38,232 nt of DNA, taken from positions 1 to 38,232 of IMG/VR virus record IMGVR_UViG_3300023049_000018; one strand, written 5' to 3'. Below the pieces are notes generated by a model, which worked only from the letters and a program-made list of their open reading frames with translations, made no database searches and had not been told where the DNA came from. Below, one piece after another: positions 24,649 to 28,520 of this stretch (position 1 is its first letter; every line of letters starts with the position of its first letter). The position numbers were made by a program, and so were the translations under genes. The DNA is from a virus.

Positions 24649-26937
24649 TTATTTCTCCAAGTTGCGAGCTAGCTTGATTAGAACTGCTGCTAGGTTGATT
24701 TCTGGATCTGCTACAAGTGCATGGTCTACTAGTCCTTGCTTGATAATCAGAACTGCTTGGTCTTGTTGGGCATTACCTTTGCCTAATAGCTCTACGTTAG
24801 CGTACAACCAAGTGTAAATCTCCTCCATCTCTTCTGGGCGGACCGCACCGCACAACAATTGTCTTGCTGCTTGGATCTTACCTGCTTTAAACAAGTCGAC
24901 CATTTCAACCTTCCAGTCTTGCTCACCTTTGTCGGCTTCGTTAGGAGAAATTAGCTTACTGTCTTGCGAGTTCATCTGCACCATGTTGATACATTTACGC
25001 AGATCCGGATAGGTTGCTTTGACATAGGTGTCCAGTGTATCCAAATCAAATTCAACCTTTTCGTCGATTAGGATCTGTGCTACTCGAGCAGTAAACTCAG
25101 TCTGATCAATCTTAGCAATGTGAAAGCCTTGACAACGTGAGTGCAATGCTGGAATTACCCTGTTGGGGTAATTACAATTATGACTCATAAACCCGTTCGT
25201 GACGTACCAGTGTACATCTTCAAGACAACAGTCGTAAACTTCTGTTTTGTTGTGAGTGTCTTCTATGCTTACTATACTATCGTTTATAATGCCATGGCCG
25301 TAATATTTGTCCCTCCATTCAGCAAATGTCAAGAATCCGTAAGCTGATTGCTGCATCTTGTACTGTAAATATCCCATTACGTCTACAGTCTCTTGCTTGT
25401 CATAGTAGTTCCCAATTGTTTCTAAGAAACGTTTAACTTGAGAAGTCTTACCGCAGTAAAGATGCATCTCTCTTCCGGTGCTGCCGAATGTCGATGTGTA
25501 AGAGTCTCGCGTACTAGTTTGCATTTCTAAGTCAAAATGTTTAGCTGCATATAGTGCAATCTCTTCTAAAAACGATACTTGGTCGTCATTTACTATCGAT
25601 TGAGTCAAAAGTACCGGACTTACTGATATATTGTCGGCCAAAACCTTTATACTTTTGCCGTCAGCGTCGTACAGCCCTTGCAAGAATCCTTTAAAAAACA
25701 GCTTATATTGTGCAAGAGCAGGAACTTTTCTATAAGTCGTTGTCTTATTCCCTACAGTTACGCCGATGTATTCTAATAGTAACTTCAGCGGTCTATTGTT
25801 GTAGTAACTACACAACCCTTTTGAGTCTACGCCGTTTCTACTACAATTATACGTCACATCTACAAACTTTAGAAGATCTCGATGCACCTTCTCTAGAGTA
25901 CCTCGGTTGTTTGCTGCTAAGTGTAACGTAGTTGACAGATGACCGTCACCCTCCATAAATCCGGCGATCCGTCCTAACGAAAGTAACAAGTCGGCATTAA
26001 ACTGATCGAAATTTAGCTGCTCAATAATGTTCTCTACAGTGTACACAGTATTAATAAACTTGTTAATGTGTCTTACGTCTACTGCATTTACAGTAACAAA
26101 GTTATCAAACTCTGCATAGTCTTTTTTGAGGGCGTTTGTGTCAAAAGAGTATACAAACCTTGAAGCAGAAACATACTGCTTATTAGTAATATATTTTTCT
26201 AATTTACAAAACAGGTTTCTTACAGTTGCTTTGGATTTGCCTAGTGAATTTGCTAAATCAACAAGAGTCAACTCAGTTAGGTTGTTGTCAACAATATAAT
26301 TAAATATTTCGAAGTGACTTTTATCAAACACAAAGCACTTGTTATCTATTAGATATTGCTTTTGTTGTTCGGTTATAACTCCTTTGTTCGTTAGCCACAA
26401 GTAAAAATCTGTTTTACTAAAACAGTTATTGTAGTCTACGTCCTCGGCATTAAACGAATTGCCGTACAACTGCCCGGCGTAAACTGGAATACTGTCGCCT
26501 ACGTGCAAACTCTTAGCAATTTTTTCTCCCGACAACGTAAAGAATTTATGGTCGGGAGTGGCGTTTATTTCAAAACCGTGCGCTGTTTTTATCAGGCGAG
26601 TAGTGTTTGATATTGATTTTTTAATAGTTTTAGATTCTAAGAAATTATCAAACGACGCTACGTTAGTGTTGTCTAGTAAGCTGTCGATTCTTCTCATGCC
26701 TTCTGGTGTTGTTACCTTTGTGTCTCCAGTAACACAGGTCAGTATAAACCTTGCTGTTTCGTGATGCTCTTCCATTACGCCACGCAGTGCTGCCTGAGCG
26801 TTTGGGGACAAATAGTCACAATTGTGAGTTAATATTTTTTTATCTGTAATGAAGAAATTGTGATTATCTTCAACAGTTAAATCATATACTTGACGAGAAC
26901 TTGATTTTTTGATAGATTTAATTTTTAGTTTGTTCAT
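24649..26937 (-). CDS. 44: clamp loader large subunit gp44, C-terminal piece, with split-intein C-part and a complete second intein
   Basis: 762 aa. Residues 1-39 are a split-intein C-part. Residues 40-67 (CDYLSPNAQAALRGVMEE...ARFILT) continue the Walker B region. Residues 68-587 are a complete intein. Residues 588-762 resume with CNYPNRVIPALHSRCQGFHI, carrying sensor 1 and the arginine-finger SRC, to the end. Joined to the 106-aa N-terminal extein the spliced protein is about 309 aa (T4 gp44: 319). One trans- and one cis-splicing event are needed to make an active AAA+ clamp loader. Confidence 0.93.
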   Translation of the reverse strand: MNKLKIKSIKKSSSRQVYDLTVEDNHNFFITDKKILTHNCDYLSPNAQAALRGVMEEHHETARFILTCVTGDTKVTTPEGMRRIDSLLDNTNVASFDNFLESKTIKKSISNTTRLIKTAHGFEINATPDHKFFTLSGEKIAKSLHVGDSIPVYAGQLYGNSFNAEDVDYNNCFSKTDFYLWLTNKGVITEQQKQYLIDNKCFVFDKSHFEIFNYIVDNNLTELTLVDLANSLGKSKATVRNLFCKLEKYITNKQYVSASRFVYSFDTNALKKDYAEFDNFVTVNAVDVRHINKFINTVYTVENIIEQLNFDQFNADLLLSLGRIAGFMEGDGHLSTTLHLAANNRGTLEKVHRDLLKFVDVTYNCSRNGVDSKGLCSYYNNRPLKLLLEYIGVTVGNKTTTYRKVPALAQYKLFFKGFLQGLYDADGKSIKVLADNISVSPVLLTQSIVNDDQVSFLEEIALYAAKHFDLEMQTSTRDSYTSTFGSTGREMHLYCGKTSQVKRFLETIGNYYDKQETVDVMGYLQYKMQQSAYGFLTFAEWRDKYYGHGIINDSIVSIEDTHNKTEVYDCCLEDVHWYVTNGFMSHNCNYPNRVIPALHSRCQGFHIAKIDQTEFTARVAQILIDEKVEFDLDTLDTYVKATYPDLRKCINMVQMNSQDSKLISPNEADKGEQDWKVEMVDLFKAGKIQAARQLLCGAVRPEEMEEIYTWLYANVELLGKGNAQQDQAVLIIKQGLVDHALVADPEINLAAVLIKLARNLEK
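25177..26736 (-). mobile_element. complete intein with LAGLIDADG endonuclease in gp44 (sensor 1 site)
   Basis: 520 residues between ILT and CNYPNR. Block A is CVTGDTKV (Cys1), block B TPDHKFF (~60-66), block F VYDCCLEDVHWYV, block G MSHN, +1 Cys. Endonuclease motifs are RIAGFMEGDG (~256-265) and FLQGLYDADG (~351-360). An extra region at ~100-250 includes a helix-turn-helix-like stretch (LVDLANSLGKSKATVRNLF). Ordinary class 1 intein, apparently intact. Confidence 0.9.
26821..26937 (-). mobile_element. split intein C-part (IntC) in gp44
   Basis: 39 residues. Block F reads RQVYDLTVEDNHNFFITDKK and block G ILTHN, with Cys+1 in CDYLSP. Its ribosome-binding site (AAGGAAA) and start lie within the last codons of the endonuclease gene upstream. 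Confidence 0.9.
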
Positions 26938-27862
26938 AGAATTTCCTTATTTTATTTGAAGTTTTTTCATCGAATAATGAATAATCGTTTGGCTCTGGAT
27001 TTCTTAATAGATACTCTTTATCTACTAAAATAAATGTATAACCGTTGTTATCACACCATTCTTTTAATGCTTTTATTTTACACTGGGTTCTTTCGTCGTT
27101 TGTTAATTCTTTAGGTTTAACTTCTATTGCTTTTTTCGATTTATGATTAACAAAGTCTACTATGTAGATATGCCTTTTATTGTTAAATGTATAAGGAACC
27201 CTTAATGATTCATAATTAGCATCTGGGTCGTGATAATGATAAAGAGCTTCCCATGAACTGCGGTATTTTCTATTATTGTAGTACGAATCCCAATGAGTAT
27301 TCCTATTATTAGAATTAGGAGTAAATTCATTATTTAAAATTCGATTTCGCATTATTTCTGAATTTACAACAGAAGAATGTGCTCTTGCTTTTTCACCTGC
27401 ACTTGTTTTATGAAATTCTTTAAGGGCTCTAGAAATTTTTTGACTATTGTTTTTAGCTACTTCTATTCCTTTTTCTGTACGATAAAATTTTAATTTAGAT
27501 TCTGAAATTTTCTTTCCTCGTTCTTCTAGGTGTTCAGAGGACAAACACTTATTCCATGCTTTATTTCTTGTACATTCAGGACAATATTTAAAAAATCCTT
27601 GTTGCCACCCCGCGTAAAAGTATGATTCTATACCTAAAATGCATTCACAATACTTACAATAATGGGTTTCTTCTAACATAAAATGAAACCTATTACAACT
27701 ACCTTGATCTAAATGCCGAGAAATATTTTCTTGCCAGCGTCTTTTAGTGTCATAAACAACGTCTTTTTTAAATAAAGAAGTATAACCATCTACACAGTCG
27801 ACTAACAACTTTAATTCGTCGTTAGTATAATATTTTCGTCGAAAGTAGGTATTACCTCCCAT
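26918..27862 (-). CDS. free-standing homing endonuclease between the gp44 pieces
   Basis: 314 aa. A zinc-ribbon-like CKYC...CPEC is at 69-97. NUMOD3-like DNA-binding repeats follow at ~116-160 (RGKKISESKLKFYRTEKG; QKISRALKEFHKTSAGEK). The C-terminal nuclease core is SSWE (E205), YIVDF (D236) and IEVKP (E247-x-K249), as in the PD-(D/E)xK/Vsr-like superfamily. Published 'fractured genes' with split inteins in marine metagenomes carry an endonuclease gene in this same position (a Vsr-related family). It would cut intein-free gp44 and spread the whole cassette. It overlaps the IntC gene by 20 bases. Confidence 0.82.
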   Translation of the reverse strand: MGGNTYFRRKYYTNDELKLLVDCVDGYTSLFKKDVVYDTKRRWQENISRHLDQGSCNRFHFMLEETHYCKYCECILGIESYFYAGWQQGFFKYCPECTRNKAWNKCLSSEHLEERGKKISESKLKFYRTEKGIEVAKNNSQKISRALKEFHKTSAGEKARAHSSVVNSEIMRNRILNNEFTPNSNNRNTHWDSYYNNRKYRSSWEALYHYHDPDANYESLRVPYTFNNKRHIYIVDFVNHKSKKAIEVKPKELTNDERTQCKIKALKEWCDNNGYTFILVDKEYLLRNPEPNDYSLFDEKTSNKIRKFYEQTKN

Positions 27863-27899
27863 GTTTTAATCCTTATAAATTGGTTGCGAAATACTTGTT

Positions 27900-28520
27900 T
27901 TAAGTTGTTAAAATATGATCATAGTTGTGGAGTTCAGATGCTTTAACAACTTCTGTTACACCATTATTATCTACGTACCATTTGTGATCAGGTGTACAAA
28001 TAACTACTTCACCGTTGTCGAATTCAATTTCCAACGTTTCCTGGACTCCTTTGCCAAATAAAGTAAATGGCTTCCATTCAATTCTGTCTGTCTCGACATT
28101 GTATGATTTAACTAAATCATGATCGTCATTGAGATTTTTTATTTTAACTAACTGTTCTTCGTTATTTTGTAGAACAACAACAAGCGTTTCTTCATCTAAA
28201 CACTCGTCTAGTAAAACGGCCTTGAAGTCACCAAACGGAATCATCTGTACAAAGTTAACAATCTTGTCGCGAACGTCGTCAACTGAGTTTGTGCGACTTG
28301 CGTTAATTTCAAGAATGTCTAATGGATTAAGGTCAAGTTCATTAAATAGCAGTTTTGCTAGTGTGGTCTTACCAATACCTGCGTTACCAGAAAAGATAAG
28401 ATGCGGAATTGTTTTGTCTTTAATCCACTGCTCAACTTGCTTGCGCTGTGCACCGTCTCGGAACACGTAGCCTTCTACCGACTTCGGTCTATACTTCTCT
28501 ACCCAGAGAGATTTTGCCAT
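27900..28520 (-). CDS. 44: clamp loader large subunit gp44, N-terminal piece, ending in split-intein N-part
   Basis: 206 aa. The first 106 are AAA+ clamp loader: MAKSLWVEKYRPKSVEGYVF, Walker A GNAGIGKTTLAK (46-57), and AVLLDE, the first half of Walker B. The remaining 100 aa are intein N-part. The gene stops after ILTT. Its start overlaps the end of the nuclease-tailed gene by 22 bases. Alone it lacks sensor 1, the arginine finger and the rest of Walker B (DE|CD). Confidence 0.93.
   Translation of the reverse strand: MAKSLWVEKYRPKSVEGYVFRDGAQRKQVEQWIKDKTIPHLIFSGNAGIGKTTLAKLLFNELDLNPLDILEINASRTNSVDDVRDKIVNFVQMIPFGDFKAVLLDECLDEETLVVVLQNNEEQLVKIKNLNDDHDLVKSYNVETDRIEWKPFTLFGKGVQETLEIEFDNGEVVICTPDHKWYVDNNGVTEVVKASELHNYDHILTT
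27903..28202 (-). mobile_element. split intein N-part (IntN) in gp44
   Basis: 100 residues. Block A is CLDEETLVVV (Cys1); block B is VICTPDHKWYV (T-x-x-H). No endonuclease domain. Pairs with the 39-residue IntC at 26821-26937; together ~139 residues, a normal mini-intein size. Confidence 0.9.

What the first reader, a model, noticed from the sequence alone, without database searches (positions are those of the whole stretch)
24649..28520. Clamp loader gp44 broken by a split intein, with a homing endonuclease between the halves and a second complete intein
Seen directly: the gp44 coding sequence is in two genes, DE|CD of Walker B is interrupted by IntN/IntC, an endonuclease ORF lies between, and a further 520-aa LAGLIDADG intein sits at LT|CN (sensor 1) only 28 residues later. 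Making one active protein needs one trans- and one cis-splicing event. Known: split-intein 'fractured genes' with a Vsr-related endonuclease were described from marine metagenomes. The pairing with a second, differently mobile intein 84 bases away in the same gene appears unusual.
Basis: partly seen in the sequence, partly recalled or inferred. Interest (0 to 1): 0.85.

Follow-up and report, generated by a model that had tools for sequence, protein, structure and literature searches.

The report
Phage clamp loader split by inteins
A phage gene for a DNA-replication protein is cut in two by a split intein with a homing endonuclease gene in the gap, and carries a second, complete intein; every relative of that endonuclease we could read sits at the same catalytic-motif position of an ATPase gene.

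Summary
On the minus strand, gp44 is in two genes: 106 aa + IntN (100 aa), then IntC (39 aa) + 28 aa + a 520-aa LAGLIDADG intein + 175 aa. A 314-aa endonuclease gene lies between them. All intein catalytic residues are present, and the exteins are under strong purifying selection (dN/dS about 0.03 against an intact 309-aa relative).

(1) The endonuclease is TnsA-like (PD-(D/E)XK), closer to TnsA than to Vsr. (2) Its readable relatives (55 distinct N-side junctions) all lie in split inteins at one place, Walker B Asp-Glu|Cys, in clamp loaders, SF2 helicases including UvsW, XPD/DinG-like helicases, TerL and PhoH. Intein-free clamp loaders have Ala there (159/159) and intein-free helicases have Val (80/80), whereas every intein-bearing copy has Cys. 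So the element appears to bring its own +1 Cys. (3) Endonuclease and intein trees conflict strongly: the clamp-loader intein acquired an endonuclease of the helicase-intein lineage.

The second intein sits at the known RFC-c site (sensor 1). A second intein in a Walker-B-fractured gene also occurs elsewhere (L119, L104, L130, L178). Splicing and cleavage are inferred, not shown. New variant of the 'fractured gene' kind.

The parts
28203..28520 (-). gp44 N-extein, 106 aa (Walker A GNAGIGKTT; ends at Walker B AVLLDE)
   Evidence: phrog_168 E 5e-28; RFC small subunits in PDB, best 6.8e-15
27903..28202 (-). IntN, 100 aa, C1 and block B TPDH; net charge -13
   Evidence: (Intein_splicing 1.2e-8, just under cut-off); NrdJ-1 intein match 1e-5
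26918..27862 (-). homing endonuclease gene, 314 aa, TnsA-like PD-(D/E)XK domain at about 180-296 (E205, D236, E247/K249)
   Evidence: PF08722 36.6 bits against cut-off 26.5; AF2 pLDDT 92.5; TnsA 1t0f Z 8.8; G+C 0.297
26821..26937 (-). IntC, 39 aa, ends ILTHN; net charge +4; start overlaps the endonuclease end by 20 nt
   Evidence: G+C 0.222
26737..26820 (-). gp44 middle extein, 28 aa (C+1 DYLSPNAQAALRGVMEEHHETARFILT)
   Evidence: matches L001 without intein
25177..26736 (-). second intein, 520 aa, Hint domain with two LAGLIDADG motifs (GFMEGDG, GLYDADG), at the RFC-c/sensor-1 site LT|CN
   Evidence: PF14890 1.6e-22, LAGLIDADG_3 18.3 bits (below cut-off 22.5); C588 aligns with Cys139 of A. fulgidus RFC (site c in PMC2814812)
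24649..25176 (-). gp44 C-extein, 175 aa, and stop
   Evidence: phrog_168 1.5e-30

Best explanation
The gp44 clamp loader gene has been invaded at two of its catalytic motifs by two different mobile protein-splicing elements. The first is a 'fractured gene' element in Walker B: a split class-1 intein (IntN 100 aa, IntC 39 aa) with a TnsA-like PD-(D/E)XK homing endonuclease gene in the gap. The two gp44 precursors are made as separate proteins, associate through oppositely charged intein halves and trans-splice; the 520-aa LAGLIDADG intein at sensor 1 excises itself in cis; the product is a 309-aa clamp loader whose Walker B reads DECD instead of DEAD. The endonuclease cuts intein-free Walker B alleles of co-infecting relatives, and repair copies in the whole cassette together with the TGY codon for Cys+1. 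Members of this endonuclease lineage occupy the same Walker B position (DE|C) in several unrelated ATPase families, and their genes are exchanged between split inteins of different targets. Shown: anatomy, site rule, residue difference between occupied and empty alleles, tree conflict. Inferred: splicing, cleavage, homing and the direction of spread.
For: Anatomy and intact catalytic residues. Charge complementarity IntN -13 / IntC +4; A+T-rich insert (0.22-0.33 G+C) in exteins of 0.43-0.50. Purifying selection on exteins: dN 0.026, dS 0.89 against L001. Same split intein + endonuclease at the same gp44 site in L103 and L114 (= L082) and in more distant clamp loaders, including a 462-kb phage (L093). 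80 IMG/VR loci and 13 phage-record loci with the endonuclease: all 55 distinct N-side junctions read DE|C and all readable C-side junctions read N|C followed by H, D, A or Q. Intein-free alleles: Ala 159/159 in clamp loaders, Val 80/80 in helicases, native Cys in T4 UvsW and T4 gp17. Codon wobble positions are free. Tree conflict: the endonuclease data reject a clamp-loader clade, p-AU 2.8e-6; the intein data reject placing the window's intein with the helicase inteins, p-AU 5.8e-6, with clamp inteins one clade at 100/100. An island of 13 differences from -17 to +41 around site 1, flanked by 49 and 47 identical bases against L001, fits co-conversion (post hoc limits).
Against: No splicing or cleavage data. 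The island of differences was delimited after seeing it, and parts of gp44 are more alike between window and L001 than neighbouring genes, so recombination in gp44 may have other causes. The record may be a fragment, so a second intact gp44 elsewhere is not excluded. The N-side junction search looked for an E-C junction, although the C side was scored apart. A helicase-only endonuclease clade that shuts out the window group is not significantly rejected (p-AU 0.098).
Confidence: 0.82

Rival explanations
1. Ordinary descent: the split intein and its endonuclease were inherited together within each ATPase family, Walker B is favoured only because it is a conserved active site, and the Cys predated insertion.
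For: Clamp-loader inteins form one clade; inteins favour conserved sites (PMC2814812); T4 UvsW and gp17 have native Cys.
Against: Endonuclease and intein histories conflict strongly. 239 of 239 intein-free clamp loaders and helicases lack Cys, including L001, whose N-extein is 97% identical to the window's. All known copies share one exact position in at least five protein families.
Confidence: 0.1
2. The broken gp44 is a decaying or non-functional gene, and an intact clamp loader elsewhere does the work.
For: Only 38 kb are held, so the rest of the genome is unseen; no splicing data.
Against: Open frames throughout, all splice-junction residues present, exteins under strong purifying selection (dN/dS about 0.03), intein parts and endonuclease also constrained (dS saturated).
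Confidence: 0.05
3. The split intein is a regulatory device that delays or conditions replisome assembly, rather than a mere parasite.
For: The DNA polymerase of the same phage is also split by an apparent trans-splicing intein at YGD|TDS, so two replisome proteins need trans-splicing.
Against: Sporadic distribution (159 sampled intein-free clamp loaders) and an intact-looking endonuclease are typical of a selfish element; nothing here tests regulation.
Confidence: 0.06

Closest known systems
'Fractured genes' with split inteins and a free endonuclease in the gap (Dassa et al. 2009, doi 10.1093/nar/gkp095; paper not held, known from citations and memory)
   Same: Gene in two pieces, split intein at the usual endonuclease position, endonuclease gene between, phage replication/repair enzyme.
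   Different: TnsA-like rather than Vsr-like endonuclease; Walker B site shared across several ATPase families; second intein in the same gene. Whether clamp loaders were among their enzyme types could not be checked.
Fractured UvsW in Salmonella phage S16 and Proteus phage PM2; fractured TerL gp17 in Krischvirus, Tequatrovirus and Gelderlandvirus phages; PhoH of Campylobacter phages (PMC3322345 reports inteins there)
   Same: Same endonuclease family between the halves, same DE|C junction.
   Different: Other target proteins; TerL copies are atypically split (short IntN, long IntC), some with the endonuclease fused in frame to the N-half.
Archaeal RFC inteins at sites a (Walker A), b and c (sensor 1) (PMC2814812)
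   Same: The window's second intein is at site c (Ser138/Cys139 of A. fulgidus); L119's extra intein is at the Walker A site (a).
   Different: The Walker B site of the split intein is not among the three RFC sites listed in that paper.
TnsA of Tn7, and I-Bth0305I / Vsr
   Same: Same PD-(D/E)XK-type fold; best structural match is TnsA.
   Different: No transposition genes beside it; some relatives carry homing-type DNA-binding elements (NUMOD3, zinc-finger matches).
TerL1-e inteins in Walker B of mycobacteriophage terminases (PMC5050341)
   Same: Intein in Walker B of an ATPase.
   Different: Described there as an insertion in the terminase gene; no shared endonuclease or cross-family rule in the passages read.

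Membership tests
Fractured gene (split intein plus endonuclease in the gap) | Host gene in two open frames that end in IntN and begin with IntC | tested here: met
   same in L103, L114
Fractured gene (split intein plus endonuclease in the gap) | Free-standing endonuclease gene between the halves | tested here: met
   No Vsr Pfam match at E up to 1 while TnsA-like PF08722 passes its cut-off; TnsA Z 8.8 and 8.7 against Vsr 5.9 and I-Bth0305I 5.6. Same superfamily fold, different nearest family.
Naturally split class-1 intein | C1, block B TxxH, C-terminal HN, +1 Cys | tested here: met
   read directly; PF14890
Naturally split class-1 intein | Trans-splicing activity | not testable with these tools
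   needs an experiment
LAGLIDADG intein (second intein) | Hint splicing domain split by a two-motif LAGLIDADG domain | tested here: met
   PF14890 1.6e-22 with two stretches; motifs GFMEGDG and GLYDADG read directly; Pfam LAGLIDADG_3 18.3 bits, below its 22.5 cut-off
RFC-c intein site | Insertion between Ser138 and Cys139 (A. fulgidus RFC numbering) | tested here: met
   query 587-588 aligns to chain residues 138-139; site definition in PMC2814812
TnsA-like PD-(D/E)XK nuclease | Sequence profile and fold with E, D, (E/Q)xK | tested here: met
   (D236 and E247 invariant, E205 and K249 nearly invariant in 39 sequences)
Tn7 TnsA | Partner transposase genes tnsB/tnsC beside it | tested here: not met
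   neighbouring genes are gp44 halves; no such family in the scans of neighbouring ORFs
Phage clamp loader gp44 | AAA+ clamp loader profile over both halves | tested here: met
   phrog_168 E 5.2e-28 and 1.5e-30

The most novel reading that the evidence does not exclude
One lineage of TnsA-like homing endonucleases recognises the Walker B (DE-x) coding sequence itself, tolerant at wobble and +1 positions, and so acts as the shared engine that carries split inteins between unrelated ATPase genes, rewriting the residue after the catalytic Glu to Cys wherever it lands.
Probability: 0.35. Interest if true: 0.82.

Novelty: new variant of a known kind. Interest (0 to 1): 0.68.

Why it matters
It makes the question of how inteins reach new genes testable. 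Here the endonuclease, not the intein, is common to one active-site motif in at least five ATPase families, and the two parts have separable histories. The residue difference (Ala or Val in empty alleles, Cys at +1 in occupied ones) points to a selfish element that changes its host's catalytic motif and does not merely use a suitable site. The set also supplies dozens of natural split inteins in a shared extein context (DE|C), useful for protein engineering.

Tried and rejected
Endonuclease search with the single window protein in IMG/VR gave nothing; only the alignment reached the family. The second intein has no relative over its full length in phage records (only short Hint matches in RNR and portal genes) and none in bacterial/archaeal genomes at the tool's sensitivity; the scan of IMG/VR with the whole C-half found no other copy of it. 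The endonuclease family was not found in genome contigs either, though the pattern used was narrow. A profile search of the PDB with the endonuclease alignment found nothing; only the predicted fold did. Foldseek against PDB directly and against BFVD could not be run, machine busy. PF13177 in the own record gave no hit, probably because the gene is broken. Dassa et al. 2009 is not in the library. Free-standing copies of the endonuclease, which would weaken the Walker B rule, were looked for among the 93 fetched loci and not seen.

Full report
Observation. The finding is real and the coordinates are right. On the minus strand of a 38,232-base virus record, gp44 is encoded in two genes, 28520-27900 and 26937-24649, with a 314-aa endonuclease gene (27862-26918) between them. 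The first gene ends in a 100-aa IntN that follows ...AVLLDE; the second begins with a 39-aa IntC ending ILTHN, then CDYLS...RFILT (28 aa), a 520-aa intein, and CNYPN... (175 aa). Both halves match the phage clamp loader family phrog_168 (5e-28, 1.5e-30). A relative, L001, has the intact 309-aa protein with both sites empty.

Are the inteins intact? The split intein has Cys1, TPDH in block B, HN at the end and Cys+1; the second intein has Cys1, TPDH, SHN and Cys+1 and two LAGLIDADG motifs (read directly; Pfam PF14890 at 1.6e-22). IntN carries net charge -13 and IntC +4, as expected of natural split inteins whose halves meet by opposite charge (PMC11923092). The insert is A+T-rich (0.22-0.33 G+C for IntN, endonuclease and IntC) against 0.43-0.50 for the exteins. 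The exteins differ from L001 by 124 bases but only 13 residues (dN 0.026, dS 0.89), so the protein is still selected. Splicing itself is inferred.

The endonuclease. Pfam places it in the TnsA-like family (PF08722, above cut-off) and gives no Vsr match; relatives match the same family, with NUMOD3 or zinc-finger-like matches elsewhere in some. An AlphaFold model (39 sequences, mean pLDDT 92.5) matches TnsA best (Z 8.8 and 8.7; 109-119 residues aligned, rmsd 2.8-3.9), then Vsr (5.9) and the homing endonuclease I-Bth0305I (5.6).

A Walker B family. Searching phage records with the endonuclease gave neighbours that are halves of UvsW, TerL and PhoH. A scan of IMG/VR with the alignment gave 93 loci, 80 of them fetched. 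Reading the junctions of these and of 13 phage-record loci: 55 distinct N-side junctions, every one ending Asp-Glu before the intein Cys1; every readable C-side junction is Asn|Cys followed by His, Asp, Ala or Gln. These are the Walker B/motif II sites of clamp loaders (11 loci or groups), SF2 helicases, XPD/DinG-like helicases, TerL and PhoH (target names from phage annotation, motifs and sequence resemblance; the helicase subtypes were not each profiled). No copy was seen elsewhere. The third codon positions (GAY GAR | TGY) vary freely, so the constant is the protein motif.

The element brings its own Cys. Intein-free clamp loaders have Ala after Asp-Glu in 159 of 159. Intein-free relatives of the helicase target have Val in 80 of 80. 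All intein-bearing copies have Cys. T4 UvsW and T4 gp17, which lack inteins, natively have Cys. L001, whose N-extein is 97% identical to the window's in protein, has Ala, so the change is recent and goes with the insertion. Around site 1 the window differs from L001 at 13 of 59 bases (-17 to +41) between two stretches of 49 and 47 identical bases; divergence rises from 34/402 before site 2 to 90/525 after it (p 1.3e-4). Both fit co-conversion during homing, but the limits were chosen after looking.

Endonuclease and intein have different histories. In the endonuclease tree the window, L103 and L114 (all clamp loader) lie among helicase-borne copies, while six other clamp-loader copies form a separate clade; one clamp-loader clade is rejected (p-AU 2.8e-6). 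In the intein tree all nine clamp-loader inteins (the deep L181 left out) are one clade at 100/100, and joining the window's group to the helicase inteins is rejected (p-AU 5.8e-6). The simplest reading is that a clamp-loader split intein exchanged its endonuclease for one of the helicase-borne lineage. The reverse test, a helicase-only endonuclease clade, is not rejected (p-AU 0.098), so the direction is less sure than the conflict.

The second intein. It lies at LT|CN, which aligns with Ser138/Cys139 of A. fulgidus RFC, the known intein site RFC-c (PMC2814812). All 79 intein-free gp44 relatives checked have Thr-Cys-Asn there, so this intein uses a native Cys. The Walker B site is not among the three RFC sites of that paper. 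No near relative of this intein was found. Double occupancy is not unique: L119 (clamp loader) and L104, L130 and L178 (helicases) carry an extra intein at Walker A.

Context. The DNA polymerase of the same phage is also fractured: 5077-2855 ends in a Ser1 IntN after ...YGD and 2712-1714 begins with IntC ...HLVHN|TDS. Its closest solved relative is 9hth, the Aes123 PolB1 split intein (PMC11923092). Two replisome proteins of this phage therefore appear to need trans-splicing.

Judgement. The arrangement is a member of the fractured-gene kind, with features that make it a variant: a TnsA-like endonuclease, a Walker B rule across at least five ATPase families, a different +1 residue in occupied and empty alleles, and a shuffled endonuclease. 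I did not find this rule in the papers searched, but the key 2009 paper is not held, so priority is not settled.

Noticed in passing
window 5077-1714 (-): The B-family DNA polymerase is also split by an intein: ExN 5077-3221 and IntN 3220-2858 (Ser1, YGD|SVTGES), IntC 2712-2575 and ExC 2574-1714 (HLVHN|TDSVYF). No endonuclease lies in the 142-nt gap. Resembles the cysteine-less Aes123 PolB1 split intein (9hth).
   Followed up: partly
L119, L104, L130, L178: Other Walker-B-fractured genes carry a second intein at Walker A (HHN|T or HN|SGKS), so double occupancy recurs.
   Followed up: partly
L091, L097, L098: In TerL the N-half, a short IntN and the endonuclease are one open frame (about 581-585 aa), followed by a long IntC: an atypically split intein with the endonuclease fused in frame.
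   Followed up: partly
window 28987-28499 (-): 162-aa ORF overlapping the gp44 start; its first part resembles a 92-aa ORF of L001 (phrog_16192), the extra C-terminal 70 aa (YISDF...YEIKS.WTW) looks like a nuclease fragment, possibly a relic of another homing endonuclease next to gp44.
   Followed up: no
window 31560-31045 (-): 171-aa protein matching DNA polymerase phrog_11127, with a motif like that of bacterial Pol III alpha (WGVGRGSSVASFV), although the phage has its own B-family polymerase.
   Followed up: no
window 33566-31827 (-): 579-aa ORF with many degenerate repeats of the type GDVTGNVTGD, probably a tail-fibre-like repeat protein.
   Followed up: no
L101 (Campylobacter phage CP21): The endonuclease in the PhoH gap is broken into two frames, as if decaying, while the CP20 copy (L094) is intact.
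   Followed up: no
L092 (Klebsiella phage KP13-7): NrdA broken into several pieces by at least two split inteins with different endonuclease-like ORFs between.
   Followed up: no
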